From an uncultured Acidobacteriota bacterium (GTDB lineage Bacteria > Acidobacteriota > Terriglobia > Terriglobales > Acidobacteriaceae), in assembly GCA_903873705.1 (NCBI GenBank), contig CAIQPK010000064.1:62001-126000 (forward strand): a stretch of DNA of 64,000 bases. Reading direction: 5' to 3'. A model generated the notes under the pieces. That model saw only the letters and a program-made list of their open reading frames with translations. It was not told where the DNA came from and did not search any database. The translations under genes were made by a program, and so were the position numbers. Every line of letters starts with the position of its first letter. Position 1 is the stretch's first letter. This document shows, piece after piece, positions 1 through 22,226 of this stretch.

Positions 1-822
1 ACTGCGGAGGACGTAAATAGTGCCACTAGGGATGTCGTCCGGCTCCATGGTGTCGGTGAAAAGCGGGCCGAGGTCGGGCCTCGTGAGGCGGCGACCGTTC
101 TCGTCTTTGTATAGGCCGCGTTGAAGAGAGCGGAGCAGCAGATTGCTTTCCGTTCCATTGCTGTAGATGACTCGAAGTCGAGCGTCAGTAGCACCATTGG
201 ACTCGCGCCGCCAGGATTCGCCGACGTTATCGACGTACAGCAGCTGGCCGTTGTAGATGAAGAAGTCACCCGCTTCTATGCTCGCATCCTTCACGAACCG
301 CTTGGCTTCGCGGAGGCCGGAGGTGAGTTCGCCTTGAGCTTGATCGAACAGGGGTTTGAATTTGTCGAAGTCTTTGCAGGGGAACCGGTCGGCAATCTGT
401 TCGGCGGCTACAACGTCCCCGCGTTCTTCGAGAGGCTTTACGTGGCGGAGGACGCTGATGTCGGTGTCATTGGAGTCGTTGAGTTCGGCGAGAAGGTCGT
501 CATCTTCCAGAGTGTCCACCGGCGATGTAGCCTCGGAACCGGCTAGGAGACGGTGAGGGTCCATCGGGAGCAGAATGGAGAGATCCTCGGCCGGAAGTTT
601 GCGTAGCTGGTCAAGCCGGACAGCGTAGATGCGCTCAAAGATATCCCCGTCGTGGCTGTGTCGGGGGGGATGACCGTTTGTTTCATAAAAACGTAGGATG
701 TCTTCAAAGCCGGCGATGATGCGCTCCTGCCGGGCAGTGTATCCGCCAGTTTGCTCCTCGGCGATTTCGACACCGAGTTCGTCGAGCAGTTCATCGCCTG
801 TGAGATTCTTAACCTCTTTCAT
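1..822 (-). CDS. GIY-YIG nuclease family protein, C-terminus cut by window edge
   Basis: The frame is open from an ATG at 822 to the window edge (274 codons) with no stop. The long N-terminal part is helical and charged. The last visible residues, SGTIYVLRS, match the first strand of a GIY-YIG nuclease fold, so the catalytic half lies to the left of the window. The start overlaps the stop of the helicase gene in an ATGA, so the two are translationally coupled. I recognise this protein type as the usual third partner of an MmeI-like methyltransferase and a DEAD helicase; in that setting it would supply DNA cleavage. The fold call rests on the nine terminal residues and on the neighbours. Confidence 0.72.
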   Translation of the reverse strand, partial: MKEVKNLTGDELLDELGVEIAEEQTGGYTARQERIIAGFEDILRFYETNGHPPRHSHDGDIFERIYAVRLDQLRKLPAEDLSILLPMDPHRLLAGSEATSPVDTLEDDDLLAELNDSNDTDISVLRHVKPLEERGDVVAAEQIADRFPCKDFDKFKPLFDQAQGELTSGLREAKRFVKDASIEAGDFFIYNGQLLYVDNVGESWRRESNGATDARLRVIYSNGTESNLLLRSLQRGLYKDENGRRLTRPDLGPLFTDTMEPDDIPSGTIYVLRS

Positions 823-2885
823 ACTTCTTCCTTCGCGGCCGCAGCCTTAGCTCTGCGGACGTATTCGGTATAGGCAGCGACACCTTCCGCAAGTTTTTTC
901 TCCCAAGGGTCATTGGAGGATAGCGAGGGTGGTCTACTGCGCTCCCGTTTGAAGACGACGGCGCGCTTCGTGAAATCTCGCGCTTCTTCTTCGCTCATAG
1001 TCACACGTCGAGCTGCGATTTTCTCCTGCATTTGCCGAAGCGTCTCTGCATTCATGCTTCGAGCGAGCACGGAATAAGCCTCGCCAAATGGGTTGATGGC
1101 ATCGATGAGGTCGACGCTCAGCTCACGGACATGCAGGACAAATTTCTTGATCCCCTGGAGCAGGCCGAGGTTGGCATGGATCTTGTCTTCCTGCTTCTGT
1201 GCACTTTGCACCAAGGTGAGGGCTGCAACGGCACGCTGGCGGACGGCTTCCACATCGTCTTCGCTGAGTTCAGGGTAACGTTCACGGACGATCTTTGCGA
1301 CTCGAACCTGTGTGGTCTCTTGCGGAAGCGTATTCTCATTGTCGAAGAGCCCCTTGCTGATGGTTTCCTTATCCTGCACAACGGCGGCGATTACATCGTT
1401 CAGATCTTCGCGGCAGATTCTGGCCGCTTCCGGACTGATCTCTTTCAGACCGGTAATCTCGATGTTGATTCGTCCGTTCGTTTCATCGACCCCGACGTTG
1501 GTTCGGCCTTCCTGATAGCCCTCTTGGCCGTAATCGAAGCCGTCCTGCGGGCCTGCATTCTTGGGGCTGAAGTCGAACTTTGGCGCGAGGACCTGCTCCA
1601 TCAGCAGACTCGCGGCGATGGCCTTCAAGGTGTCGTTCACGGCTTCGACAACATCGGACTGTGCAGCCATCGGCTCGGCGATCAGATTGGTAAAGCGCGC
1701 ACTTGCCTTGCCGGGAGCATCGCGTGTCACGCGCCCAATGATCTGGACGATCTCGGTCAGGCTGTTACGGTATCCGACTGTCAGCGCGTGTTCGCACCAA
1801 ATCCAATCAAAGCCTTCTTTGGCCATACCGAGCGCGATGATGACGTCGACATGGTCGCGGTCATTTCGGTGCGCGGGATCTCGTAGGGCGCCAAGTATGC
1901 GGCTGCGCCGGTTGCCGTCTGTGTCATCCACAAGATCGGCGACTTTCAAGATGCGCCCCGTCTCTTTGTGCCTCACGAGATGGAAGTCAGTCTTCGGGTC
2001 GCGCTCCATCCACTCGCCCAGCACGCTCAAAATGGCGCTGACTTCCTCATGCTTGTCCGTGGTGCTGGCGCTGGAGTTCACACTGGGAATATGCACGATG
2101 GTCTTAAGCTCTGGGTTTAGGACTTCTTCGATGGCCTCGAGGTAGTTGCCGGTGTAGAACCAGTAGCCGATGTCCAGTGACTTCAAGTATTCGTAGCCGT
2201 TGAGTTGCTCATAATACGTGTAGACGACAGTCTTGAACCGGGCTTCGTCGTCCGGGCTCAGGACGGCGACGGCGTCACCGCGGAAGTAAGAGCCGGTCAT
2301 GGCGACGACGTGAGCACTCCCCTTATCAAGTAGCTCTTTGAGTTGCGCTCCCAGCCGATTGTTGTCACTGGTTGAGACGTGATGGAATTCATCTATCGCT
2401 ATAAGCCGACTGTCAAAAGCTCCAGCGCCGTATGCCTCCAGCGCGAAGCGGAAGGTAGCATGCGTGCAAACCAGAGCCTTGTCGTCACCGGCAAGGAATT
2501 CGGCCACGGCTTTTACCTTGCCGCTGGAGACCCGATCGTCGTCTGCGCCAGGCATTGCGCATAGGTTCCAACGGGGCTTTACGATCCAGTCGGCCCAGAA
2601 ACCGCTGGCCGCAAGCGGCTCGTCGCTGAAACTTGCGCCTATGGACCGCTCTGGCACCACAATCAGCGCCTGCTTCACGCCCTGATTAGTCAACTTGTCG
2701 AGCGCAACATACATCAGGGCGCGGCTCTTGCCGCTGGCCGGTGGCGACTTGATCAGTAGGTATTGCTCGCCGCGCATCTGGTACACGCGCTCCTGCATGG
2801 GACGCATACCCATCTCGTTGACGTGCGTGGAGCGGCCCGTATGACTGGTCGCGATGGAGACGGAGGGAATCGAAACTCTGCTCAT
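819..2885 (-). CDS. DEAD/DEAH-box helicase of a restriction-like system
   Basis: A 688-residue superfamily 2 helicase. Visible motifs are Walker A PPASGKSR (about 48-55), Walker B DEFH (165-168), motif III TGS (197-199) and motif VI QIIGRVTRD (381-389), with the GMAKEGFDW motif V region just before it. The roughly 300 residues after motif VI are helical and probably contact partners. It resembles the helicase subunits of type III-like restriction systems and would translocate on DNA with ATP. Its ATG overlaps the methyltransferase stop by 4 bp and its stop overlaps the GIY-YIG start by 4 bp, so the three genes form one coupled operon. Confidence 0.85.
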   Translation of the reverse strand: MSRVSIPSVSIATSHTGRSTHVNEMGMRPMQERVYQMRGEQYLLIKSPPASGKSRALMYVALDKLTNQGVKQALIVVPERSIGASFSDEPLAASGFWADWIVKPRWNLCAMPGADDDRVSSGKVKAVAEFLAGDDKALVCTHATFRFALEAYGAGAFDSRLIAIDEFHHVSTSDNNRLGAQLKELLDKGSAHVVAMTGSYFRGDAVAVLSPDDEARFKTVVYTYYEQLNGYEYLKSLDIGYWFYTGNYLEAIEEVLNPELKTIVHIPSVNSSASTTDKHEEVSAILSVLGEWMERDPKTDFHLVRHKETGRILKVADLVDDTDGNRRSRILGALRDPAHRNDRDHVDVIIALGMAKEGFDWIWCEHALTVGYRNSLTEIVQIIGRVTRDAPGKASARFTNLIAEPMAAQSDVVEAVNDTLKAIAASLLMEQVLAPKFDFSPKNAGPQDGFDYGQEGYQEGRTNVGVDETNGRINIEITGLKEISPEAARICREDLNDVIAAVVQDKETISKGLFDNENTLPQETTQVRVAKIVRERYPELSEDDVEAVRQRAVAALTLVQSAQKQEDKIHANLGLLQGIKKFVLHVRELSVDLIDAINPFGEAYSVLARSMNAETLRQMQEKIAARRVTMSEEEARDFTKRAVVFKRERSRPPSLSSNDPWEKKLAEGVAAYTEYVRRAKAAAAKEEV

Positions 2886-5671
2886 ACTTGTACCTTCCCT
2901 GCTCGTTTGACGATTGGTTTGGATGTAGCACCGATCATCTTCGTGTACATCTCAAAAAGTTTCTCGAGTCGCTCAGTGTCATTACGAAAACGGCGACCTA
3001 TATAAATGCGCTCTAACATCTCATCATTCGCTTCGTGTGCGGCGCGGAGATTTTCCGGCATCGTTTCGGGATGATAGAGATCTGCAATAGTTGCTGGAAA
3101 GTGAGCTTCCCGGGCGAGCAAAATGTCTTCTGCGCAGCGTTTGAGATCAGTCTTGTTCTGTTCCGTGAGCGAAGGGGTGGGAAAGGTATTCCAACCTAAA
3201 GTATTTGAGTAGGAGAAGTCCGTGCGCATCCGCACACAAACTGTTCCGATCCACACCCAGTGCAACCGGGACGCAATGATCGACATATTCCACAGCGGCG
3301 CATCATACAGAGCGAAGTTTCGGTCGCCTATAATCGCCTCGGCTCCCACAAGACCGACGGGAAGGTACGGACGATTCTCTGATGAAACTCTAGGTACTAC
3401 CAATACATGATTCCGTGCGCGATTCATCTCGCGCATTTGATATGGCCTATCAGCTTTATCTCGTGCGCCTTTATCCGAACTCTGGAGTCTGAGGGACCGG
3501 ACCCGTTGAAATCGTTCAGCAAAATTCTGAATCCGCTCCGCATCAGGAATAGATTCATCTTCGACCCATATGCAATATCTCGGTAGACCACGGATGAACT
3601 CAGCTGAGCCATAAAAGCGCTTTATGAATTTTTCCCGTTGCCCATCAGTGAGTTCCATACGGGACATCTCTTGACTACTCAAAAGCAAATTGCCGCCGTC
3701 GATTGGCGTGTTTCCACGGATCATATCGGGAAAGCCGCGAGTGGGCCGACTTGCCTTTCCAATGATGACGTTTGGGCCAGAGATCAGATAGGCGTTGATA
3801 GTCTCCACGTCACGAAACGTGGAAGATGATTCATCGATCCCGACTGAGAATAGACGAGCCACTCCCAGGCGTCGCGCATTCAGGCCAATGATCACAACAG
3901 TCACGCCGGCATTGTTCGTTGCGAGGTTTTTCCATCGTAAAGAAGGATACGCGAAGTTGATCTTGAGTTTGTCACCAAGCAAGAATGACCAGAGAATCGC
4001 TACTTGCTGACCTTGGCATATCGAATTGGTTGATACGAACGCAAAGGCACCGTTAGCACTCCGCATAAAGTCCGCCGCCTTGATGAACCATCCTGCGACA
4101 TAATCCAGCAAGCTACAGTTCCGAATACGACCATGACAAATTTCGCTTATATCTTCTTTTTGGTCGGCAGACTGCCAAGCCGAACCCAAATAAGGTGGAT
4201 TACCGCAGATATAGGTTTCGCCGCCCTCATTTTCGAAGTCGATCGCAGATTGTTCTAGCGGGGTCTGAAACAAATCGTCAGAGTGCAACTTCACACTTGT
4301 CCCCGACGGTGGACAGACTTTCAGCCAGTCGACACGTAAAGCGTTGTCACAAACGATCCAATTCATTTCGTCAAGCGGAAGGAACTCAGCCTTTGCCGCG
4401 AGTGGACCGCGATGCTGTACGTCACATTGGTACTCGGCGATGACTAACGCAAGCCTGGCAATCTCAGCTGCGAAATCGCGCAACTCAATACCGCAGAAGT
4501 TCCTCTTGTAAAGGTCGCTGGGCCGCATGCGCTCTTCACGTCTGCGGTTGATTTCGGCTTCAATGGACCGCATCTGCTTGTAAGCGATAACGAGGAAATT
4601 TCCCGATCCACAGGCAGGATCAAAGACACGGATGCGGCTCATGCGCTGACGGAGGTTCAGCAACATACGGCCATTGTCGCCGGCGGCGTCGAGCTGGGCG
4701 CGGAGGCCATCGAGAAACAGCGGGTTGAGCACCTTCAAAATATTGGGCACGCTAGTGTAGTGCATGCCGAGCGCTCCGCGCTCTTCGTCGTCGGCGACAG
4801 CCTGAATCATCGAGCCGAAGATGTCGGGGTTGATGTGCTGCCACTCCAGCTTGCCCGCCTGCAACAAATAGCTGCGCGCAATGCGATTGAAAACCGGCGT
4901 TTCCGTGGAGTCCGCAAAGAGACCACCGTTTACGTAAGGGAACTGGTCCGCATAAGGGCGCAAGCCCTTCTCCATGCGCCCTCCCGGCTTCACATTCATC
5001 GCCTGGAAGATTTCCCCCATCACCTGATGGGTGTTGCTGCCGTCGCCCTCGCTCATCTGTTCAACGGTGTCGGTAAAGAGCCGGGTGCCATTGAATATGT
5101 CGGTGTGCTCAGCGAAAAAACAGAAAATAATCCGCGCCATAAAGTGGTTCATGTCATGGCGGCGGGCGGCGGTGCCCCAGTCCGGATTGGTGCGGAGGAG
5201 CTCGACGTAAAGCTTATTCAGACGCCCAGTGGCGCGAACGTCTATAGCGCTGTCTTTGATCTCCTTGACGGTGGAGATGCCGGCGAGCGGAAGAAAGAAG
5301 CCGAAATGGTTCGCGAGGTTAGGGAGAAAGTCTGCGATGTGCTCCGGCGCACTCGTCACATCTTCGGCCTCAAAGTAGTTGCCATCCGTGGCGAAGATGA
5401 ACTTGGCGCGTGAAGAGAAGGTCTTAGGGCTGGCTTTGAGCAGGTCGAGCGTCTGCCGCGTCTGCCCTTCAGGGCACGTAGCGAGGTGTATGTTGTTGAT
5501 CAGCAACACCGCACCGGGGACATCAGATTTGTTGGTATCGCCCTTGCGAAGGCGCTTCAGCGTCGCTTCCTTCTTATCGAAGGCCGCTAAAAACTGAAAC
5601 GGAAACTCGGCGGCGTCGTAATGCGCGGACGCAAGCTCGGATACCGCCGCCTCAATCTCAACTGCGTTCAT
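2882..5671 (-). CDS. Class I SAM-dependent DNA methyltransferase (MmeI-like)
   Basis: A 929-residue N6-adenine-type DNA methyltransferase. Motif I is DPACGSGNF (351-359) and motif IV is NPPY (491-494), followed by a long C-terminal region fitting a target-recognition domain. The first 300 residues resemble the N-terminal and helical spacer domains of MmeI. I cannot find a D...ExK nuclease motif in residues 1-130, where MmeI carries its endonuclease, so this looks like a methyltransferase-only member whose cleavage comes from partner genes. It is first in a three-gene operon with helicase and GIY-YIG genes, both joined by 4-bp overlaps. Function of the set as phage or plasmid restriction is inferred. 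Confidence 0.85.
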   Translation of the reverse strand: MNAVEIEAAVSELASAHYDAAEFPFQFLAAFDKKEATLKRLRKGDTNKSDVPGAVLLINNIHLATCPEGQTRQTLDLLKASPKTFSSRAKFIFATDGNYFEAEDVTSAPEHIADFLPNLANHFGFFLPLAGISTVKEIKDSAIDVRATGRLNKLYVELLRTNPDWGTAARRHDMNHFMARIIFCFFAEHTDIFNGTRLFTDTVEQMSEGDGSNTHQVMGEIFQAMNVKPGGRMEKGLRPYADQFPYVNGGLFADSTETPVFNRIARSYLLQAGKLEWQHINPDIFGSMIQAVADDEERGALGMHYTSVPNILKVLNPLFLDGLRAQLDAAGDNGRMLLNLRQRMSRIRVFDPACGSGNFLVIAYKQMRSIEAEINRRREERMRPSDLYKRNFCGIELRDFAAEIARLALVIAEYQCDVQHRGPLAAKAEFLPLDEMNWIVCDNALRVDWLKVCPPSGTSVKLHSDDLFQTPLEQSAIDFENEGGETYICGNPPYLGSAWQSADQKEDISEICHGRIRNCSLLDYVAGWFIKAADFMRSANGAFAFVSTNSICQGQQVAILWSFLLGDKLKINFAYPSLRWKNLATNNAGVTVVIIGLNARRLGVARLFSVGIDESSSTFRDVETINAYLISGPNVIIGKASRPTRGFPDMIRGNTPIDGGNLLLSSQEMSRMELTDGQREKFIKRFYGSAEFIRGLPRYCIWVEDESIPDAERIQNFAERFQRVRSLRLQSSDKGARDKADRPYQMREMNRARNHVLVVPRVSSENRPYLPVGLVGAEAIIGDRNFALYDAPLWNMSIIASRLHWVWIGTVCVRMRTDFSYSNTLGWNTFPTPSLTEQNKTDLKRCAEDILLAREAHFPATIADLYHPETMPENLRAAHEANDEMLERIYIGRRFRNDTERLEKLFEMYTKMIGATSKPIVKRAGKVQV

Positions 5672-5760: not shown

Positions 5761-6390
5761 TCATCCCAGCAGTCGCTCTAAACCGTCCCAATCAATCGAT
5801 ATTGGTTCTCTCACCCTGGGATCGCACAAGCCTAGCTCGGCCAAAGTGTAATCCATTCTGCCAAAATTGCAGGGCGCACAGGTGACAACAACATTCTCAA
5901 GGTCGTTGGTACCCCCTCGCGCGTGAGGCAGGATGTGATCGAACTGTGCCCACATCGCTTGAAAAGCTGCATGCTGTGAACCGTTCGTGCGGCCCCACGG
6001 CAGAGCCTCCGGATACATCTTGTGCAGAATCTGCCTTATCTCCGAGCGGACGACCGGCACGCCACAAAAGCGACAGCAATAGCAGTCTCGTTCGAGGAGC
6101 TTTAGCTTATCCGCAAGCGAAGGCATCCTCGCCCGTATGCGGAACTCCTTCGTCAGAACGACGGGTGTGTCTTCAACCGCCCTATACAGGCGATATGGAC
6201 TTGCCTTGCCCCATAGGGACTCCACCCATTCACGAATCACCGGCATGTCGGCAAGCAGGATGAGTTCACCCGCTCTCTTTGTATCGCCTTCCAAATGCGC
6301 GGTCACAGCGTCACTCAGATACAGAGCCGCCACCGCTATTTCTGGTATCGCAGGACGTAGGCACGGCCGATTCGTTTCTCGCGGTTCCAT
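5761..6390 (-). CDS. HNH endonuclease
   Basis: With the ATG at 6390 the protein has 209 residues. A C-terminal HNH domain is clear: C-x2-C at about 106-109, DHILPHARGG (151-160), N166, and a second C-x2-C followed by Asn at 171-175. This is the zinc-bound beta-beta-alpha metal type, so DNA cleavage is the likely activity. The N-terminal 100 residues are not recognised. I prefer this start to the longer frame (to 6468) because the longer one runs into the upstream gene and GAGGTGAGG lies just ahead of 6390. It is the last gene of an operon with a 72-residue protein, a membrane J-domain protein and a zinc-finger protein. Confidence 0.8.
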   Translation of the reverse strand: MEPRETNRPCLRPAIPEIAVAALYLSDAVTAHLEGDTKRAGELILLADMPVIREWVESLWGKASPYRLYRAVEDTPVVLTKEFRIRARMPSLADKLKLLERDCYCCRFCGVPVVRSEIRQILHKMYPEALPWGRTNGSQHAAFQAMWAQFDHILPHARGGTNDLENVVVTCAPCNFGRMDYTLAELGLCDPRVREPISIDWDGLERLLG

Positions 6391-6403
6391 CTTTCTATCT
6401 GCC

Positions 6404-6622
6404 TCACCTCGTATTCTCCACGGCGCTGTCCTCACCAGGCAAGCCGGGTTCCGCCCGGCTAAGGGCAATCAGCGCTTCCGCAAAGTCAATCTCACCGCCC
6501 TCTGCTTTCGCAACTTCCTCCACCTGCCGGACGCATGCCTCCAGCTCGGGCGGCAGTCGCGCACTGGGGTCGAAGTGGTCGTCTGCTGAATACCATGAGT
6601 CGATCTCGGTGATGTCAGGCAT
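6404..6622 (-). CDS. Small acidic protein of unknown function (72 aa)
   Basis: The ATG at 6622 lies inside the end of the J-domain gene (8-bp overlap) and the stop is 13 bp before the HNH start, so it is embedded in the operon. The protein is acidic (start MPDITEID), rich in Glu/Asp/Ala, with a predicted helix around LEACVRQVEEVAKAE, and has no recognisable domain. Its size and place directly before a nuclease would suit an immunity, adaptor or inhibitor protein, but that is a guess from context only. The longer frame to 6676 would overlap the J-domain gene further and has no better start. Confidence 0.6.
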   Translation of the reverse strand: MPDITEIDSWYSADDHFDPSARLPPELEACVRQVEEVAKAEGGEIDFAEALIALSRAEPGLPGEDSAVENTR

Positions 6623-7664
6623 TCTTTGAAAGCTCCTCGTAGGCAGAGTTGATTCGGGCGAGTTCCCGATTCGCATAGGCGCGAAGTTCCGGCGCCATAT
6701 TCTCTAGTCGATCAGGATGCCATTCCCGAACTTTTCGATGATATGCAGCCTTGACGTCCTCTCGCGTCGCCGTGTGGTCGACTCCGAGGAGGGTATATGG
6801 AGCGGTTGACGAATCGCTGTATACCCCCGCGCTGCGATGGCGTCCCGCCTCCTCCGCTTCTGCAGTACTCATCCGTTCCCGTACTGCTTCCGTGATGAAC
6901 GCCGTGTACTCGGCTAGAGCCTGTTGATGTGAAGCTTCGGAGTCTGCAGCCGCCTGCGCAGAAAGATTGGCGAGAAAAGTAAGGAATTGCAGGGTCCCAA
7001 CTATGCAATCGGGTATTTCGAGCGCTAGCGCCACTGCGGCATCAATAACGTGCGGGACGTGAAACGTGATGATGTGGGCGGGCCAAGCCCTGGTAACCAC
7101 GTTCTCCGCTCGATTTCGGGACATCGGCTCCGTGGAAAGCTTCTGGTAAAGATTTGCATGAAGCGGCTTCTGCGTTCCTGCACGCGCGCCGACCGCCACG
7201 ATGACGTGGAGCATATCTGTGTCCCAAGAATCCATGACGGCATCAAAGGGGCCGGAATCGCGAAAGGCAATGCCCGTTTTCGCGAAGTCTTGGATAAGTG
7301 CTGAGGGGAACGGGTGGCAGTCAGCCTCCTCTGAAACATCTCTCTGTGCTTGCCAGACCTCCGCTTCGGCCCGCAAAGCTTTTCTTGCTGAAGCCCTGTC
7401 TTCAGCATCTTCTCTCGTGAAGCTGGCTACCACCGCTACTGCTCCCCCTACCAGGTACACGAGCGTCATCAGACCAGTGACAATCAGCCAAGCAAGGCCG
7501 ATGCCTCTTGAGAATGAGCCGTCATGCGCGAACATCAAGATGAGGAAACCGCTGACGCCAGACACAAAGAAGATCACAGTCAAACCGCCTCCGGTGTATT
7601 CGGGCTGTCGGATGCACATCATGAGCAGGAGCAGCACTAAAGGACAAACTATCCACCAGACCAT
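6615..7664 (-). CDS. Membrane-anchored J-domain protein
   Basis: A 349-residue protein. Residues 1-85 hold three hydrophobic segments (WIVCPLVLLLLMMC; LTVIFFVSGVSGFLILMF; IGLAWLIVTGLMTLVYLVGGAVAVV). A charged helical middle follows, and a J domain occupies about 290-349 with the essential HPD tripeptide in REWHPDRL. J domains stimulate Hsp70 ATPase, so this is probably a membrane-tethered Hsp70 co-chaperone. There is no zinc-finger domain in the protein; a separate zinc-finger ORF lies directly upstream and ends in TAATG with this start. The gene overlaps the downstream 72-residue ORF by 8 bp. The link to an HNH nuclease operon is unusual. Confidence 0.8.
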   Translation of the reverse strand: MVWWIVCPLVLLLLMMCIRQPEYTGGGLTVIFFVSGVSGFLILMFAHDGSFSRGIGLAWLIVTGLMTLVYLVGGAVAVVASFTREDAEDRASARKALRAEAEVWQAQRDVSEEADCHPFPSALIQDFAKTGIAFRDSGPFDAVMDSWDTDMLHVIVAVGARAGTQKPLHANLYQKLSTEPMSRNRAENVVTRAWPAHIITFHVPHVIDAAVALALEIPDCIVGTLQFLTFLANLSAQAAADSEASHQQALAEYTAFITEAVRERMSTAEAEEAGRHRSAGVYSDSSTAPYTLLGVDHTATREDVKAAYHRKVREWHPDRLENMAPELRAYANRELARINSAYEELSKNA

Positions 7665-7828
7665 TACTTCTGCCCCGTTCCACGGCAGACTTTACACACG
7701 CCCGACGCCGAACAGAACGCGCACGGCGTCTTGAAGTTGGCCAATGACCCGATGCCTCTATAGCCAGATTTGCCGGTGCCTCGGCACTGTTGGCACTTGC
7801 CGGTTCCGCTGCATTGCTTGCACGTCAT
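7664..7828 (-). CDS. DnaJ-type zinc-finger mini-protein (54 aa)
   Basis: Too short for most gene finders. The ATG at 7828 is preceded by a strong AAGGAG six bases upstream, and the TAA overlaps the next ATG (TAATG). The protein is almost entirely four cysteine repeats: CKQCSGTG, CQQCRGTG, CAFCSASG and CKVCRGTG. This is the CxxCxGxG arrangement of the DnaJ zinc-binding domain, which binds two zinc ions and helps hold substrates. Here it is a stand-alone protein next to a J-domain protein that lacks it, so the two together look like a split DnaJ. It is the first gene of the operon and lies divergent from an XRE regulator 85 bp away. Confidence 0.78.
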   Translation of the reverse strand: MTCKQCSGTGKCQQCRGTGKSGYRGIGSLANFKTPCAFCSASGVCKVCRGTGQK

Positions 7829-7913: not shown

Positions 7914-8204
7914 GTGTCTGACCCTCGCAAACTTCTCGGAAGTGCAGTCAAGAAGCGTCGGCTGAAGCTTGGGCTCACCCAGGAACAGCTCGCTGAGAGA
8001 GCGGACCTGCACTGGACCTATGTCTCAGGCGTTGAGCGCGGGGTTCGCAGCATAGGAATAGTCAAATTGACCGATATCGCCGAGGCTTTGCATGTCCGCG
8101 TACGCGAGCTCGAGACCTTTAGCCGGGCTTTGTCTCATTATCCAAACGCAGCCGTACTGGTTCTTTGTCCAAGTCCCCCAGCGGACCCGCCAGCGATGCG
8201 TTGA
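7914..8204 (+). CDS. XRE-family HTH transcriptional regulator
   Basis: A 96-residue protein, of which residues 7-65 form a typical XRE/Cro-CI helix-turn-helix (LGLTQEQLAERADLH, then YVSGVERGVRS). The start used is a GTG that sits immediately after GGAGG, which is closer than optimal, so the true start is not certain. It is transcribed away from the zinc-finger/J-domain/HNH operon, so it could regulate that promoter region. Its last 85 bp overlap the end of a convergent metallophosphoesterase gene, and the Pro-rich tail (about residues 80-96) may be a read-through rather than conserved. Confidence 0.75.
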   Translation: MSDPRKLLGSAVKKRRLKLGLTQEQLAERADLHWTYVSGVERGVRSIGIVKLTDIAEALHVRVRELETFSRALSHYPNAAVLVLCPSPPADPPAMR

Positions 8205-8799
8205 CGAACAACATGCTTGCGGTGTGACGAATGCCAGCCGCGCTATGGACATGCCCGAAAACGTGCAGCTTAAGTTGTAGACGCTTGAGCTCTTTTCTCA
8301 GGGCCATACAGCCCGAGTGGCGGTCTGAGCCGGGTTCTCCGTCCAGAATTCCCGAAGGCGGGATATGCGTAACGAGAATATCCGTGTCGCTCGGAATCGT
8401 CGCCCATACCTTCGCGCGGTCTGCTTCATCTGGCATAGCAAACGCACCAGACGACAGATTCGTGACTGGTGAGCCCCAAATTTTGACCCCACCCAGCTCC
8501 ACGCCGGAGTTGATGAGCAGATGAGCATTATTGATTTGCTTTTGGAATTCAGGCAGTGCGAGCAGCGTGTCATGATTTCCCGGAACTAGGACCTTGTAGC
8601 GATATGGCTGCTCAACCAACCATTCGTTGAAATCCTTCAGCACCGATGGACGACGCGAGAAGAAAGTGACGTCACCGGCATGGATGAGCAGGTCGCCCGG
8701 TGGGAGATAGATGTCACGATAGAGTTCGTGGGTGTCGCTGAGGCAAGTCACAATCAAGCTGAATGAGTCTCCAAATCGGGTCGGACCAAAAGCGTACAT
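8119..8799 (-). CDS. Metallophosphoesterase (MPPED2-like)
   Basis: A 226-residue calcineurin-like phosphoesterase. Metal-ligand motifs are in the expected order: SDTH, HAGD, PGNHD, THIPPSG and FGHVH. The short length and motif spacing resemble MPPED1/2-like phosphodiesterases; the substrate is unknown. The ATG at 8799 has AGAAGG just upstream. The alpha/beta hydrolase gene ends 35 bp before it on the same strand, so the two may be co-transcribed. The 3' end overlaps the convergent XRE gene by about 85 bp. Confidence 0.83.
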   Translation of the reverse strand: MYAFGPTRFGDSFSLIVTCLSDTHELYRDIYLPPGDLLIHAGDVTFFSRRPSVLKDFNEWLVEQPYRYKVLVPGNHDTLLALPEFQKQINNAHLLINSGVELGGVKIWGSPVTNLSSGAFAMPDEADRAKVWATIPSDTDILVTHIPPSGILDGEPGSDRHSGCMALRKELKRLQLKLHVFGHVHSAAGIRHTASMLFVNASLAGPLGDLDKEPVRLRLDNETKPG

Positions 8800-9502: not shown

Positions 9503-10072
9503 TCACTTCCCTATGCGCTCCCGGACGGTGCCGTAGCCAATACCGAGCCTCTCGGAGATTTGGCGTAGGCTGAGGCCGTCAGCCTTGAGCTTGAGAATCT
9601 GCTCGCGGTCAACGATGCGCTTGGGCCGACCTAACTGAACTCCTGACGCACGAGCGTTGCGAATACCGGCGCTGACGCGCTCGCGTATAAGGTCACGCTC
9701 CAGCTGGGCCACCGCAGCCACAATCGTAAAGAGAGCCTGGCCGAGAGGCGACGAAGTATCCATGTTTTCTTGGTAGCTGATGAACTGCACGCCGGCTGCG
9801 CGGAACTCGTCCAACGCAGCGAGCAGGTGCTTGGTTGAGCGAGCAAATCGGTCAAAACGCCAGCACAGCACGGCGTCAACTTTTCGTTTGCGAACGTCGT
9901 CCATGAGCCGGTTTAATTCAGGCCGCGAATCCTTGGAACCGGACACGCCGACATCGACATATTCGGTGCAACCGGGAAAGTTCCGCGCAACGCAATAGGC
10001 ACGAAGGTCTCGCAACTGCATCTCGCAGCTTTGGTCCTTTGTGCTGACGCGGGCGTATATGGCAATTCGCAG
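9503..10072 (-). CDS. Serine recombinase/resolvase; start is CTG or the gene carries a 1-base slip
   Basis: Small serine recombinase of 189 residues when read from CTG at 10072. The N-terminus then reads MRIAIYARVS with the catalytic Ser at residue 10. Other hallmarks follow: CWRFDRFARS, the AQLERDLIRERV helix, GRPK, and a C-terminal HTH (SLRQISERLGIGYGTV). The first in-frame ATG (10021) would delete the catalytic Ser. A GGAG lies 8 bases before the CTG. An out-of-frame ATG at 10080 would give MSPLRIAIYARVS if the four-C run at 10072-10075 had one more C, so a frameshift or sequencing slip is the alternative. The gene follows a three-gene operon after 31 bp. Confidence 0.82.
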   Translation of the reverse strand: MRIAIYARVSTKDQSCEMQLRDLRAYCVARNFPGCTEYVDVGVSGSKDSRPELNRLMDDVRKRKVDAVLCWRFDRFARSTKHLLAALDEFRAAGVQFISYQENMDTSSPLGQALFTIVAAVAQLERDLIRERVSAGIRNARASGVQLGRPKRIVDREQILKLKADGLSLRQISERLGIGYGTVRERIGK

Positions 10073-14203: not shown

Positions 14204-15400
14204 ATGGCACGTTACGGCATGGGCTCGCTGCGCAAAGAGCCGCTCAAACGCGGAGGTCATTCGTGGATTTACCGCTGGTACGTGACGCGGCCCTCCGACG
14301 GCAAGCGTGTGGAGCGTTCTCTTGTCATCGGCACGACAGAGGACTACCCGACCGAGCGTTCCGCCTGGGCAGAGGTGATGACCACGAGCTTGCCCGAGCG
14401 CGCACAGTCCATCGCCTTCAAAGGCAACATGACTGTCGCCGGCATCGCCGCTCACTTCGCTGAGCACGAACTCGGTGATCAGACTGTCAGTGTGCGGCCA
14501 TTGAGCCACACGACCGTCTCTGCATACAAGCGCTGCATCTCCCTCCGTATCCTCCCCCGCTGGGGGAAAGAACCCGCCACTTCGGTCAAGCCCTTAGCGG
14601 TTGAGCAGTGGTTGAAGTCTTTGAAGGAGAAAGAGGGACTCGCAAACGCAACCTTGGCAAAGACGCGCAATGTCCTGTCTCTCATCTTCAAGCACGCGAT
14701 TCGTCACGAGCTCATCTCGAGCGGAGAGGGGAGCAATCCGCTGGAACTCGTCCGCTGCGGGACAACGTCAGATTATGAGTCGCTGACTTTGGAGCCGGCG
14801 CAGGCGTTCGACATCTGGACACGACTCCCGCAGGCAGAGCGGCTCTTACTCCTTCTCTGCGCGACGACCGGTCTCCGCGTCAGCGAGGGGCTTGGTCTCC
14901 AGTGGGGCGACATCGACATTCACCGCGCTTGTATCCACATCCGCCGCACGTGGACAGCGGGCAAGATTGGGCGACCGAAGACAAAGGCCTCGCGCGGAAC
15001 AGTTCCGTTGCACTTGCTGTTGGCAGAGCACTTCGCAGCGTGGCGTGCTGAGACGCCATACGCATCTGATCAGGCTTGGGTGTTTGCCTCGTTCAGGCTG
15101 AAGGGTCGCCAGCCGCGGACCGCTTCGATCCTGGTTGAAGACTATCTGCGACCTGCGGCGGTCAAGGTTGGCGTGCTTACGGTGGATGACCCGCGACGCT
15201 TTGGGTTCCACACGCTAAGGCACTCGCTAGCAACCTTTCTGGTTGGCGCGAATGTAGACCCCAAAACGGTTCAGGCGACCCTGCGCCATGCGGATGTATC
15301 TACGACGCTCGGCATCTACACACACGCGAACAGCGACGCGAAGATGGCCGCTCAGGGTGTGGTGCTGGATGCGTTCTTTGCCGAGCAAAAGGCATCGTAG
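14204..15400 (+). CDS. int: Tyrosine recombinase/integrase
   Basis: A 398-residue phage-type integrase. An N-terminal arm-binding region and a core-binding domain (about 75-175) precede the catalytic domain. Catalytic residues appear as Arg225 (TTGLRVSEGL), His336 and Arg339 (HTLRHS), His362 (LRHADVS) and Tyr372 (LGIYTHA), with a Lys around 258-261. All are intact, so the enzyme should be active. It follows an excisionase-like gene by 4 bp. It may be the integrase that placed the island at tRNA-Phe, though it lies 6.7 kb from the tRNA end, with the GTPase operon between them. Confidence 0.92.
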   Translation: MARYGMGSLRKEPLKRGGHSWIYRWYVTRPSDGKRVERSLVIGTTEDYPTERSAWAEVMTTSLPERAQSIAFKGNMTVAGIAAHFAEHELGDQTVSVRPLSHTTVSAYKRCISLRILPRWGKEPATSVKPLAVEQWLKSLKEKEGLANATLAKTRNVLSLIFKHAIRHELISSGEGSNPLELVRCGTTSDYESLTLEPAQAFDIWTRLPQAERLLLLLCATTGLRVSEGLGLQWGDIDIHRACIHIRRTWTAGKIGRPKTKASRGTVPLHLLLAEHFAAWRAETPYASDQAWVFASFRLKGRQPRTASILVEDYLRPAAVKVGVLTVDDPRRFGFHTLRHSLATFLVGANVDPKTVQATLRHADVSTTLGIYTHANSDAKMAAQGVVLDAFFAEQKAS

Positions 15401-15414
15401 TCTGTCGCCAAAAG

Positions 15415-17433
15415 CTAAATTCGGACGCTAGCAGAGTCGATGGCGGAACGTATTATATCTTCTCGGAAGGAACGATCGTCCGCTCGGCCGTCGTCTAATG
15501 CTTCCAACAACATTCCCAACAAAGATGGGTCCTGCGTCAGAGACAGAAAGTCGCCTGTAGGAAGCCCTCCATCCACGAAGGCTCGTACTATGCCTCGCCG
15601 TAGGCGCAAGCATACGTCCCAGTTTTGCCAAAACCAGCGTGACTCCGGCAGTGCGGACTCCAAGATTACGGACGCCTGGTGGTTAAGAGAAGAATCCCAG
15701 AGCATCCTGTGCAACGATTCAAACCCGAACCTAAACAGCCTCCCCGACCCGGGAGTAGGAACTTTTAGCGCCAGTGCGACTAAGAATGCTTGAAACGTCT
15801 GCCGAGGAGCTCCTTCAACAGAATCACTGGCCCGGTCGATTGCTCTGGCCCATGGCAGCGGGCCAGAGCTGACGACCTCTCCAGTCAGAAAGTTCAAAAT
15901 CTCGGCGAAAGCGGCAAGTTCCGAGGTTGTCTCAAATGTTTCGACGATACCCCGATCGAGCGTTGCTGGTGCGATCATACTGGCGAGCTGAAGCCAAAAC
16001 GGATTTGTAGGCTCCTGATGAAACGCTCGGGATAGGAGCGCCGCAGTACGTCTAACCGCCTCAATAGGATGGAACTTGAAGATTGCTTCCGCTACTCGCG
16101 GCGATGGATTCGCGGAAAGTGCTTCGCACAGAGTGCGGACCAGCGGCAGTTCATTTTCTACGGCCTCAATGAGACCGAGTAGAGACTCTTCAGGAAGCGT
16201 GTTCAGAACATTGGTTGATAGGAGGTTCGAGTTTCTAGCCGCCAATGCCGCATAAACTTCTGGCTTTTGGGCGAAAGACGCAAGCTCGGAGACAGAGCTA
16301 TACGTAGCGACCGCTACGATTAAATCTTTTGCAAACTCGCCAATCGAGCTAACTGCGGCTTGAATCAGATTAAGCATTTCCGGTCGCGCATGACTCCAGA
16401 GGAAGCGGATGTTCTCCTCTTTCGTCGATAACAACTTCCAAGCCGGCCCACCAGGAGAGGCGATGAACCATTGAAGAGTCAAAACGGCGTTTTGAGCGCC
16501 GAGTAAAGATTCGTACGAACGATCGAATGTAACAAGCTGACGTTTAAACGCCTGAGCATCGGACTCCGATGGGTAGAGATCTTCTGTTTTCTTGAAAAGA
16601 GAGGCGAGACGGTCTGGATGCGCGTCATGTTCATATTGCAATGTGTAGGCCGAAGCAAGGACACAAAAGCTCCTCGGAGTGGCAGGAAGAAGATGACCGA
16701 ACTCGCGAAGATACCTTCTGAAGCGGCTTGGCTGAACATTGAGCAGGTCTTTACTGGCTTCGTTGAGCCAGCTTAGATCACCAAGGTCATCGAGAGGCTT
16801 CCTCTTATCGCCAATACTGTCCGACATGAAGTCGAATTGAAGGACCGGATTGCGGCTGGAGGAAGTCCGAGGGAGAGTTCTGAATCGAAACGAGTTCCTC
16901 AACCCCGGCCACTGTTGCGACCAAACGCTCAAAAGTGCGCTTGCTTGCTGATTCGGCTTCAAACTAATCAAGGAATTTGATGAACCGAGATACACAGCAT
17001 CTATAACGGACTCGCTTAAGTAATCCGCGCTTGCTTCGCGAGAAGGCATCTCCAGATATGAAGCGATGGGCAGTTGATAGCTCGCGAATCCTTCACTTAT
17101 ATTAGGTCGTTCGAAAAACTTAGTGAGGGCCGTGATATCCCACGCTTGATCGATTATTTCGCTATTCAGAATCAAAACATGGCTCCAGACACAACCTGGA
17201 CGCGACATCTCGGTGGCGGGCCATGTCCGGATGATCGCGTACCGCTCTGAATCGGGCAGCGGTGAACCGGTCCAGTATCCTTCTGCTCCAGCCACCGATG
17301 CGTTTGGCGCTACATCACTAAGCACTAGGAGGCGTTCCAATTCGCGCGCATTGAAGCGCACAGACGCCGCTAATAAGTGGTGCCCATCACTATAGCCAAA
17401 TAGGGCTTGGTCGACTTTGAGTTCATTGAGCAT
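15415..17433 (-). CDS. GTPase-associated protein 1 (GAP1-N1 type)
   Basis: A 672-residue protein. The N-terminus has the signature I associate with GAP1-N1 domains: QALFGYSDGHHLLA (about 9-22) followed by RTWPATEMSRPGCVWSH (about 69-85). The long remainder is helical and matches the layout of the GAP1 middle and C-terminal domains. These proteins were described as partners of double-GTPase systems in predicted bacterial conflict loci. The gene starts 7 bp after the stop of a GTPase gene and ends the operon. Biochemical activity is unknown; a regulatory or effector role is inferred from family context. Confidence 0.75.
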   Translation of the reverse strand: MLNELKVDQALFGYSDGHHLLAASVRFNARELERLLVLSDVAPNASVAGAEGYWTGSPLPDSERYAIIRTWPATEMSRPGCVWSHVLILNSEIIDQAWDITALTKFFERPNISEGFASYQLPIASYLEMPSREASADYLSESVIDAVYLGSSNSLISLKPNQQASALLSVWSQQWPGLRNSFRFRTLPRTSSSRNPVLQFDFMSDSIGDKRKPLDDLGDLSWLNEASKDLLNVQPSRFRRYLREFGHLLPATPRSFCVLASAYTLQYEHDAHPDRLASLFKKTEDLYPSESDAQAFKRQLVTFDRSYESLLGAQNAVLTLQWFIASPGGPAWKLLSTKEENIRFLWSHARPEMLNLIQAAVSSIGEFAKDLIVAVATYSSVSELASFAQKPEVYAALAARNSNLLSTNVLNTLPEESLLGLIEAVENELPLVRTLCEALSANPSPRVAEAIFKFHPIEAVRRTAALLSRAFHQEPTNPFWLQLASMIAPATLDRGIVETFETTSELAAFAEILNFLTGEVVSSGPLPWARAIDRASDSVEGAPRQTFQAFLVALALKVPTPGSGRLFRFGFESLHRMLWDSSLNHQASVILESALPESRWFWQNWDVCLRLRRGIVRAFVDGGLPTGDFLSLTQDPSLLGMLLEALDDGRADDRSFREDIIRSAIDSASVRI

Positions 17434-17440
17434 GGAAGGG

Positions 17441-18292
17441 TCAGCCCTGTTCCGACAGCCACAAAACCGGCCGGCTCAGATCGCTACTCACATCACCGCC
17501 ATGCTGTACGACGATTCGCTCGCTCGGAATCTTTTTCAGCAGGGCCGTTCGAACCTCGGCGTTGTCGGCATTTTCGCTAACATCGCCGCCTTGAGCCGAA
17601 ACGCCATAGACTTTCAGCGAGAAGCTCTGAGGATTGGTAACCAAGAATTGCCAAAGAAAAGGCATCTCCGCTCGGAGCCAGCTGTCCGGCGTCACCTCGT
17701 CGTTTGCAGCAACGTCCCAAGCTGAAATCACGATCGCTAGCTTGCGAAGTTTTATGTCGTATGGTTGCTGCTGCATCCCGCGAAGCAGATCTACAAGCTT
17801 GGCTTGCTCTGATACGCAATCATGTGTCCATTCGGTGGCATCGGCAAAATTGTCTGGGCCTCCTACAAGATCAACTCCTGCATCAAGAATTGAAACGGCC
17901 TGATGTGGACGGTCTGCTGTCATAAAAAGCAGAATGCCGCCGTCACTATTGACATGCTCTACAAATTCCGGTGTACAGGTTCTCGTAGCGAATTGATTTT
18001 TGAATGCTTCTCCCGACAAATCCCGGAAACTCAACGCAAAGGATCTTTGGCCGGCTTGATCCTTCAGATACATCACTATGTCATTCTCTTCCGCGATTGA
18101 CGTGCGGAGTACACGTTTACAGCGGCGCCACATCTCAACGATCCGGTCAAGATAAGAGGAGTCCCCCTTCAATGTCTCCAGCTCCAGAGTTGACTTAAGT
18201 TCCCCCGCATTTAGCAGATGCCAAAATGCCGCCAAGAAGGTCGTCTTGCCCGATGAGGGCATCCCGATAATAGTGTGATAAATCTCAGGCAT
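17441..18292 (-). CDS. TRAFAC-class GTPase of a GTPase-centred conflict system
   Basis: From the ATG at 18292 (283 aa) the protein starts MPEIYHTIIG followed by P-loop GMPSSGKTT (10-18). G3 is DLSG (91-94) and the G4-like motif is SAWD (190-193). This fits one of the two double-GTPase proteins that occur in tandem in these loci. The start is chosen over the longer frame (18334) because GGGAGC precedes it, and the overlap with the upstream stop is then only 8 bp. It sits between a second GTPase and GAP1. Confidence 0.8.
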   Translation of the reverse strand: MPEIYHTIIGMPSSGKTTFLAAFWHLLNAGELKSTLELETLKGDSSYLDRIVEMWRRCKRVLRTSIAEENDIVMYLKDQAGQRSFALSFRDLSGEAFKNQFATRTCTPEFVEHVNSDGGILLFMTADRPHQAVSILDAGVDLVGGPDNFADATEWTHDCVSEQAKLVDLLRGMQQQPYDIKLRKLAIVISAWDVAANDEVTPDSWLRAEMPFLWQFLVTNPQSFSLKVYGVSAQGGDVSENADNAEVRTALLKKIPSERIVVQHGGDVSSDLSRPVLWLSEQG

Positions 18293-19214
18293 CCCGGTGC
18301 TCCCACGTCTGAAAACGATCCGCGAGCTTGTCAAACTCCGTCACTGCTATCAATTCAGATATCGAGGGTAAGTTGCGTGATTTCAGCTGACCGTACCAGC
18401 TGCGCAACAACACATCAACTCCGAAGGCTCTGTCGAGGCCCCCTGTCGGATCGCGAGCTGCGACCGTGAAGAAGTCAAGGGACTTCAGACGGGGGCCGAA
18501 ATCTTCGTTCAATTTCTTCCTAAAAACATCTAGTCGTCCGTCCAAAGTCGCCCAATCGCCAGCCTGCTGAAGCAAATCCTGTTTTGTCGTGACGATCTGT
18601 ACCACACTGTTCAGGTTCACAGCCTTTGTATCCGTCAACATACGGAGCGTTTGCCGAACGATCTGCATTGCTCCCGCTCTTTCTTCAAGGTCAGCCAGTC
18701 GCCCGCCATCCATCAAGATGCAAACGATATCTGCCTTCGGAAATTCTTCAAGGTCCGCGACAAGTTCCGGGTTGCCTCGAGCGCGGTTATAAAGTTCGCC
18801 GGCGCGATCCGAGATGACGATGTCTTCGCGGTGATATGGCTCCGTCAACGAAGTGAATGCGAAATGAAAATACTGGAGACCCTCGGAGAGAGGAGTCCGG
18901 GCAGTATCTGGAGTTTGCATCCCTGAATCCAGACGTTCATAGTGTGCTCGCTTCTCCAGAGCGACGATTGTCTGTATTCCGCAACTCATCCGATCCGCAA
19001 AAACATCATGGAGGAAGCGATCATAGATGGAGCAGATCAGCGTGCTCTTTCCGCTATGCGCGTCGCCCACGAGCGTGACGACAGTGACCGGCCGCACGCA
19101 CAAGAGCGTGTCAACTTCTGAAATAGAGAACGCTTCAGAAGTCGAGAGGTCGAGTAACTCCTGAGAGATTACTTCGTCTCCCGTTGAGATCGCTTTGTCA
19201 TCCGCTTCAGCCAC
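18285..19214 (-). CDS. TRAFAC-class GTPase, second of the pair
   Basis: A 309-residue GTPase with P-loop GDAHSGKST (50-58), G3 DRAG (136-139) and G4 TKQD (210-213), the last close to the canonical NKxD/TKxD. A short acidic N-terminal extension precedes the G domain. It is paired with the GTPase encoded directly downstream (8-bp overlap), consistent with a two-GTPase module that switches together. The cognate helical protein GASH lies 15 bp upstream. Confidence 0.8.
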   Translation of the reverse strand: MAEADDKAISTGDEVISQELLDLSTSEAFSISEVDTLLCVRPVTVVTLVGDAHSGKSTLICSIYDRFLHDVFADRMSCGIQTIVALEKRAHYERLDSGMQTPDTARTPLSEGLQYFHFAFTSLTEPYHREDIVISDRAGELYNRARGNPELVADLEEFPKADIVCILMDGGRLADLEERAGAMQIVRQTLRMLTDTKAVNLNSVVQIVTTKQDLLQQAGDWATLDGRLDVFRKKLNEDFGPRLKSLDFFTVAARDPTGGLDRAFGVDVLLRSWYGQLKSRNLPSISELIAVTEFDKLADRFQTWEHRDA

Positions 19215-19229
19215 GATTGCGCCTCCTGT

Positions 19230-22010: not shown

Positions 22011-22151
22011 CACCGTCGAGCGTTCAGCTCGCGCGGCTAATTCCCGACTCCCTGCATTCGCCAAGATGCCGGAAATCACCGCAGCCCCAAACGAATCCGG
22101 GTGAAATGCGGGTGACGTTTTCTCACCGCTTCTTCTAAGTTATTGAAAAGG

Positions 22152-22226
22152 TGGTGGCCAGAGACGGGATCGAACCGCCGACGCCGGCCTTTTCAGGGCC
22201 GCGCTCTACCACTGAGCTATCTGGCC
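22152..22226 (-). tRNA. tRNA-Phe (GAA), CCA encoded
   Basis: On the minus strand the sequence folds as a full cloverleaf: acceptor GGCCAGA paired with TCTGGCC, D arm with AGCTCAGTGGTAGAGC, anticodon stem CGGCC/GGCCG around loop CTGAAAA (anticodon GAA), T arm with GGTTCGATCCC, discriminator A and encoded CCA at 22154-22152. The 3' end faces the accessory region to the left, which makes it the likely attachment target of the island. Confidence 0.95.

What the first reader, a model, noticed from the sequence alone, without database searches (positions are those of the whole stretch)
5761..7828. Split DnaJ (stand-alone zinc finger plus membrane J protein) in an operon with an HNH nuclease
Seen: a 54-residue ORF made of four CxxCxGxG-like repeats, a TAATG junction, a three-TM J-domain protein with HPD, an 8-bp overlap with a 72-residue ORF, then an HNH nuclease 13 bp on; an XRE regulator is divergent. 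Known: DnaJ normally has J domain and zinc finger in one chain, and HNH nucleases occur in defence loci. Inferred: a membrane-associated chaperone sensor may control the nuclease, with the 72-residue protein as adaptor or inhibitor. I know no described system with this layout, and it sits between defence and mobility genes in an island.
Basis: partly seen in the sequence, partly recalled or inferred. Interest (0 to 1): 0.78.

Follow-up and report, generated by a model that had tools for sequence, protein, structure and literature searches.

The report
Mobile zinc-finger and chaperone gene pair
A tiny stand-alone zinc-finger protein is encoded directly in front of a membrane chaperone partner on a mobile DNA island of an acidobacterium, and related loci pair the same finger with other protein-remodelling engines, suggesting an undescribed swap-in chaperone module; the neighbouring nuclease seems to be separate cargo.

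Summary
The sequence observation is correct. What recurs elsewhere is zinc finger (ZN, 54 aa) + membrane J protein, not the four-gene operon. ZN belongs to a compact family (22 of 56 columns invariant in nine members) found at ten loci in sampled Acidobacteriota genomes (Terriglobia). One other locus, in another genus, repeats divergent XRE / ZN / membrane J protein, without 72-aa or HNH genes. The HNH relatives whose surroundings I read (G153, two partial pieces in G193, one plasmid) have no ZN or J; no 72-aa relative was found in the two sets searched. At four more loci ZN sits directly upstream of an AAA+ ATPase, three with an N-terminal hydrophobic segment. So a J or AAA+ gene follows ZN at 6 of 10 loci, against roughly 0.4-0.8% of genes. 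Three loci have another cysteine-rich protein; one nothing recognisable. The window copy lies in a 26.5-kb tRNA-Phe island (54-bp direct repeats) with MmeI-type and GTPase-associated conflict genes. Best reading: a mobile two-gene module in which a BSD2/FIP-like finger delivers clients to a membrane remodelling engine (here J protein plus host DnaK). Defence is inferred from location only; ZN-J contact is untested. The HNH-effector idea is not supported.

The parts
7664..7828 (-). ZN: 54-aa stand-alone DnaJ-type zinc finger, four CxxCxG/A-type motifs in two tight pairs around a GYxGxG linker
   Evidence: homologues at nine further loci
6615..7664 (-). Membrane J-domain protein, 349 aa: N-terminal hydrophobic segments, unassigned middle, C-terminal J domain with HPD
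   Evidence: a J protein also directly follows ZN in G319
7914..8204 (+). Divergent XRE-family regulator, GTG start
   Evidence: divergent helix-turn-helix genes also at the ZN loci of G319, G629 and G015 (the G629 one scores just under the Pfam cut-offs)
6404..6622 (-). 72-aa ORF, overlaps J by 8 bp; no homologue found; membership doubtful
5761..6390 (-). HNH nuclease ORF, 209 aa from ATG; neighbour, probably independent cargo
8119..8799 (-). Calcineurin-like metallophosphoesterase (PADLOC PDC-S10, 1.1e-64); homologues in the held stretches of four other ZN loci (G319, G019, G316, G242)
9503..10021 (-). Small serine recombinase; homologues near the ZN genes of G629, G676, G235, G242, weaker near G316; G319 and G015 have large serine recombinases instead
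819..5671 (-). MmeI-type methylase/restriction protein (2882-5671) and DEAD helicase (819-2885); the same pair lies near ZN in G629
22151..22204 (.). Right att-like direct repeat, exactly 54 bp, overlapping tRNA-Phe (22152-22226, -); the left copy lies about 4.4 kb before the window start

Best explanation
ZN and the J protein form a mobile two-gene co-chaperone module. Shown: the finger is a conserved family, encoded immediately upstream of a membrane-anchored J protein in two genera and of an AAA+ ATPase at four other loci, mostly near serine recombinases. Inferred: ZN is a small holdase/adaptor finger that binds an unfolded or specific client; the partner anchors the complex at the inner membrane and supplies the ATP-driven step, here by recruiting host DnaK through the HPD motif, elsewhere through the AAA+ ring. 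The divergent XRE protein probably represses the pair until stress or infection. The biological role (phage conflict or stress tolerance) is inferred from the island only. HNH and the 72-aa ORF are probably separate cargo.
For: ZN-J order with divergent XRE repeats in G319; the junction is TAATG in the window and directly abutting in G319. At 6 of 10 family loci the next co-directional gene after ZN, from a 1-base overlap to 48 bp on, is a J or AAA+ gene; such genes number 19-36 places in each of four genomes, about 0.4-0.8% at an assumed one gene per kb. Five of the six partners carry an N-terminal hydrophobic segment. Serine recombinase genes lie in the held stretch at 7 of 10 loci, 8 with the weaker G316. 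Precedents: ZnJ2, a stand-alone DnaJ-type finger, is a holdase (PMC5818400, discussion read); plant FIP, a DnaJ-type finger, binds the membrane AAA+ protease FtsH5 (PMC5915565, passages read); Shewanella AtcJ heads an operon of dedicated partners (PMC6715715, abstract). Island: exact 54-bp repeats, GC 52-59% inside.
Against: ZN-J contact is untested; no complex could be predicted and both single models are poor (pLDDT 50.5 and 54). ZnJ2 showed no synergy with DnaK, with or without DnaJ. Three ZN loci are followed by an unrelated cysteine-rich protein and one by nothing recognisable, so ZN may be promiscuous cargo. Only two J pairings are known; the two J proteins are significantly alike only from residue 214 on, and their middle regions do not beat shuffles (z 0.57). 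The three membrane AAA+ partners are homologous, so pairings are not all independent, and the class 'J or AAA+' was set after seeing the data. The ZN tree does not resolve partner swapping. Two more distant fingers outside the class have neither partner.
Confidence: 0.48

Rival explanations
1. ZN is independent cargo of a recombination hotspot: a small orphan finger (redox, metal or nucleic-acid binding) carried by serine-recombinase islands, next to J and AAA+ genes only because such islands shuffle genes.
For: ZN is followed by an unrelated cysteine-rich protein at three loci and by nothing recognisable at one; resolvase, metallophosphoesterase and XRE recur around it in different orders; more distant fingers outside the class stand without such partners.
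Against: 6 of 10 loci have a J or AAA+ gene in the next co-directional position, far above the rough 0.4-0.8% base rate; overlapping or abutting junctions at three loci (window, G319, G015).
Confidence: 0.27
2. One reading: the membrane J protein plus finger senses infection and unleashes the HNH nuclease, with the 72-aa protein as adaptor or inhibitor.
For: Tight spacing of the four genes in the window; DnaJ can mediate phage sensing for bNACHT25 (PMC12169576, passages read).
Against: HNH relatives that were read in context have no ZN or J, and G319 has ZN-J without HNH or 72-aa; no homologue of the 72-aa protein in the sets searched.
Confidence: 0.08
3. Anti-phage system proper: the ZN-engine pair inactivates a phage protein, or denies the phage DnaK/DnaJ, at the membrane. 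(A specific form of the best explanation, so its odds overlap with it.)
For: Island with MmeI-type methylase, helicase and GTPase-associated conflict genes; the same MmeI-helicase pair near ZN in G629; the AAA+ partners' best PADLOC models are IetA, 8.1e-35, 1.4e-32 and 3.3e-13.
Against: No PADLOC model for ZN, and only an E 0.28 match for J; the IetA matches rest mainly on the AAA+ part; no phage assay; a location argument only.
Confidence: 0.3

Closest known systems
Plant stand-alone DnaJ-type zinc fingers (BSD2, ZnJ2, FIP, ORANGE)
   Same: Finger motifs without a J domain; FIP pairs with the membrane AAA+ protease FtsH5; ZnJ2 is a holdase
   Different: Plastid proteins; ZN is 54 aa, bacterial and operon-linked to its presumed partner; no curated family over cut-off and no solved structure with a significant match
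Anti-TRAP (RtpA) of Bacillus
   Same: 53-aa protein with a DnaJ-like finger (recalled); the only NCBIfam match of ZN, 14.9 bits
   Different: Far below that family's cut-off of 65 bits; four motifs in ZN against two in AT (recalled); no trp context seen
Type A DnaJ/Hsp40
   Same: J domain and four-motif finger both exist here, as neighbouring genes
   Different: Two chains, membrane anchor, C-terminal J domain, no other DnaJ domain found by Pfam; a one-chain DnaJ is also in the genome (L002)
AtcJABC network of Shewanella
   Same: Dedicated J protein in an operon with partner proteins (abstract); the NCBIfam model of this cold-adaptation J protein is the best match of the J domain
   Different: AtcJ is short, a J domain plus 21 residues (abstract); that it has no membrane anchor or finger partner is recalled
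DjlA
   Same: N-terminal membrane anchor and C-terminal J domain (DjlA layout recalled; J-domain match 8.9e-09)
   Different: No TerB domain detected in the middle region by Pfam, which can miss distant cases
IetAS defence system
   Same: AAA+ partners at other ZN loci match IetA models best
   Different: The window locus has no AAA+ gene next to ZN; neighbours of the other AAA+ genes were not scanned for the IetS protease

Membership tests
Stand-alone DnaJ-type zinc finger (BSD2/ZnJ2/FIP kind) | CxxCxGxG-type motifs and no J domain in the chain | tested here: met
   eight cysteines invariant in nine members, no J domain
Stand-alone DnaJ-type zinc finger (BSD2/ZnJ2/FIP kind) | DnaJ central-domain profile over its cut-off | tested here: not met
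   PF00684 17.7 bits against 32.7 (DUF7895 20 against 27); so 'works like', not 'is a member'
Stand-alone DnaJ-type zinc finger (BSD2/ZnJ2/FIP kind) | DnaJ cysteine-rich fold | tested here: inconclusive
   pLDDT 54; best solved chains E 0.16 or worse, DnaJ 1exk E 2.3
Type A DnaJ | J domain, G/F, finger and C-terminal domains in one chain | tested here: not met
J-domain protein | PF00226 over cut-off with HPD | tested here: met
   40.9 bits against 27.8
DjlA | TerB domain between anchor and J domain (recalled) | tested here: inconclusive
   no Pfam family at E up to 10 in the window protein's middle region; sequence profiles only, and HMMER's filters drop weak matches
IetAS | IetA ATPase with IetS protease | tested here: not met
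   Window: ZN and J match no Iet model and the engine is a J protein; IetA-like matches only in other genomes, IetS not searched for there
HNH defence operon (e.g. Septu PtuAB) | HNH protein of the family plus ATPase partner | tested here: not met
   PtuB E 0.054; no PtuA match among the ten neighbouring proteins scanned

The most novel reading that the evidence does not exclude
A new modular, horizontally mobile proteostasis weapon: one tiny zinc-finger client adaptor mated with interchangeable remodelling engines (Hsp70-recruiting membrane J protein, membrane AAA+, Bcs1-like AAA+), used in phage-host conflict by extracting or disarming phage or host membrane proteins. A shared sensor region between the J protein's middle and the AAA+ N-terminus (z 5.35 in one of four pair tests, HMM E 0.46) would strengthen it but is unproven.
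Probability: 0.22. Interest if true: 0.78.

Novelty: new variant of a known kind. Interest (0 to 1): 0.55.

Why it matters
If the pair is functional, it is a bacterial case in which the client-binding finger of DnaJ has become a free adaptor that can be mated with a J protein or with AAA+ engines. It would link Hsp70 and AAA+ recruitment through one 54-aa protein and could be tested with two small genes in a laboratory strain. It would also add protein remodelling at the membrane to the functions carried by acidobacterial defence islands.

Tried and rejected
HNH as part of the system: rejected because its relatives that I read in context lack ZN and J (motif scan only; 22 of 23 plasmid records were not read in context). 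TerB middle domain (DjlA-like): my first guess from reading the sequence; Pfam showed none. Shared middle domain of J and AAA+ partners: one of four pair tests stood out (z 5.35, 0 of 300 shuffles; the others z -1.1 to 1.5), the profile search gave E 0.46 with one unrelated ORF ranked higher, hhalign probability was 3.6; left open. The middle regions of the two J proteins do not match each other either (z 0.57). Structure: two AlphaFold jobs gave poor models, so no fold search was run. Relatives in viral contigs: five scans gave none. Plasmids and phages gave, for J, only matches to its C-terminal third and, for ZN, borderline ones; the AAA+ N-terminus had no plasmid match. The two borderline plasmid fingers that I looked at (Rhodococcus, Streptomyces, E 0.05 and 0.07) had no annotated J or AAA+ gene nearby (many neighbours are 'hypothetical') and were dropped. 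Two distant fingers elsewhere in the phylum (G853, G902) have neither partner and are not in the count of ten; with them it is 6 of 12. The genome-contig scan used one narrow peptide pattern, so its 6 loci are a lower bound; the whole-genome searches were samples of larger groups. Literature: seven searches showed, in the top rows listed, no finger-J or finger-AAA+ operon in bacteria; most matching papers were not opened, and subscription journals and preprints are not held.

Full report
What is there. The J domain passes Pfam's cut-off (40.9 bits against 27.8), as do HNH and XRE; ZN reaches only 17.7 bits against 32.7 for the DnaJ central domain. Hydropathy gives three N-terminal hydrophobic segments in J. 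The genome also holds a one-chain DnaJ with J domain and zinc motifs (L002); J-domain matches number four places in this genome. So this is not a split of the housekeeping gene.

Organism. Records whose contig positions coincide with unnamed relatives are titled Acidobacteria or by name; one of the same family is Occallatibacter savannae (G629) and one of the same class is titled Terriglobia (G242). I therefore write Terriglobia for the group.

The finger family. A two-row ZN profile matched 7 of 398 same-family genomes, the window's own included; a six-row profile matched 7 of 379 in the class, the window's own included and overlapping the first set; the genome-contig scan gave 6 loci from 170 candidate stretches. 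By contig positions these are ten distinct loci: window, G319, G021, G629, G019, G676, G015, G235, G316, G242. Nine members align over 56 columns with 22 invariant, including all eight cysteines and the GYxGxG linker; identity to the window's ZN is 52-63%. The tenth, G015, lacks its N-terminus in frame. In the wider phylum search 4 of 366 genomes matched, two of them new and distant (G853, G902), without J or AAA+ next to them. Viral contig scans found none.

What follows ZN. J protein: window and G319. In G319 the order is divergent XRE, ZN, J with a hydrophobic N-terminus, then a gene on the other strand; HNH and 72-aa are absent there. AAA+ with N-terminal hydrophobic segment: G021, G629, and G015, where the ATPase is split into two ORFs. 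AAA+ that I call Bcs1-like from reading (Pfam says AAA): G019. A cysteine-rich protein of about 122 aa: G235, G316, G242; a homologue also lies near ZN in G319. Nothing recognisable: G676, only a 64-aa ORF without a Pfam family 88 bp on. The J or AAA+ start lies between a 1-base overlap and 48 bp from the ZN stop. In four of the genomes J plus AAA+ places number 19, 22, 29 and 36, about 0.4-0.8% of genes if one gene per kb is assumed; 6 of 10 at that rate has a nominal binomial probability of 2e-12 to 5e-11, and 3 of 5 partner types 9e-7 to 5e-6. These figures are rough: the base rate comes from four genomes that I chose knowing their partners, the class was defined afterwards, and the three membrane AAA+ proteins are homologous (48-59% identity in the AAA+ part). 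The ZN tree is too weak to show partner swapping (no strongly supported branch).

Neighbourhood. Divergent helix-turn-helix genes occur at four loci: window, G319, G015 (over a Pfam cut-off) and G629 (22.8 against 23 and 26.8 against 27 bits). Metallophosphoesterase homologues lie in the held stretches of five loci counting the window. Serine recombinases lie at the window, G629, G676, G235, G242 (small), G319 and G015 (large), with a weaker match at G316; none was seen at G021 or G019, though G021 is held for only 536 bases on one side.

The nuclease and the 72-aa ORF. HNH relatives at E 1e-12 or better: 3 of 299 class genomes counting the window's own, G193 only as two partial pieces near contig ends, and one near-full-length hit among 23 plasmid records. 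Motif scans of the stretches held for G153, G193 and that plasmid, 9.8 to 19 kb, showed no ZN or J; the other 22 plasmid records were not read. The 72-aa protein has no plasmid match and no match better than 0.74 in held loci. I treat both as neighbours.

The island. The 3' part of tRNA-Phe (22152-22226) is repeated exactly over 54 bp about 4.4 kb before the window. GC in 2.5-kb bins is 52-59% between the copies; outside, 33 of 39 bins are at 60% or more, the lowest 57.7%. Within are a large serine recombinase, two RepB/ParB-like genes, the helicase and MmeI-type genes, HNH, J, ZN, XRE, metallophosphoesterase, resolvase, a tyrosine integrase (14204-15400) and GTPase-associated conflict genes (15415-21580). 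The MmeI-helicase pair recurs within about 3-7 kb of ZN in G629, with a third shared gene (50% identity over 400 residues; T5orf172 domain). This supports a mobile, conflict-rich setting, not a particular function of ZN-J.

Mechanism. Stand-alone DnaJ-type fingers are known chaperones in plastids; ZnJ2 held clients but showed no synergy with DnaK (PMC5818400, discussion read), and FIP binds the membrane AAA+ protease FtsH5 in two-hybrid and pull-down tests (PMC5915565, passages and outline). A dedicated J protein in an operon with partners is known in Shewanella (PMC6715715, abstract). DnaJ is needed for bNACHT25-mediated phage resistance, and J-domain mutants did not restore it (PMC12169576, passages). 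From these I infer a client-binding finger handing its client to a membrane-anchored engine, with the engine type interchangeable. That step, the role of DnaK, the XRE repression and the defence role are all untested here.

Verdict. It is a new variant of a known kind (stand-alone DnaJ-type fingers), of moderate interest, rising if a physical ZN-engine complex and a phage phenotype are shown.

Noticed in passing
window -4365 to 22204 (contig G000:C64): A 26.5-kb integrated island at tRNA-Phe with exact 54-bp direct repeats and lowered GC; its left end lies outside the window.
   Followed up: yes
window 15415-21580: GTPase-associated conflict genes: GAP1-N1, two double-GTPases, GASH helical protein, metallophosphoesterase with GAAD adaptor domain.
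   Followed up: partly
window -383 to 5671; L036 835-6342: A three-gene set (401/431-aa T5orf172-type protein, DEAD helicase, MmeI-type protein) shared by the window island and the ZN locus of G629.
   Followed up: partly
L041 6217-6582, L042, L043 6241-6609, L024 4584-5135: A cysteine- and histidine-rich protein of about 122 aa beginning like MSHRHFCD follows ZN at three loci and lies near it at a fourth; no Pfam family over cut-off.
   Followed up: partly
L039 7932-9808: In G015 the ZN start is missing in frame and the membrane AAA+ gene is split into two ORFs, so that copy looks decayed or misassembled.
   Followed up: no
window 8119-8799: Metallophosphoesterase of PADLOC class PDC-S10 with homologues in the held stretches of 4 of the 9 other ZN loci; it overlaps the XRE gene tail to tail.
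   Followed up: partly
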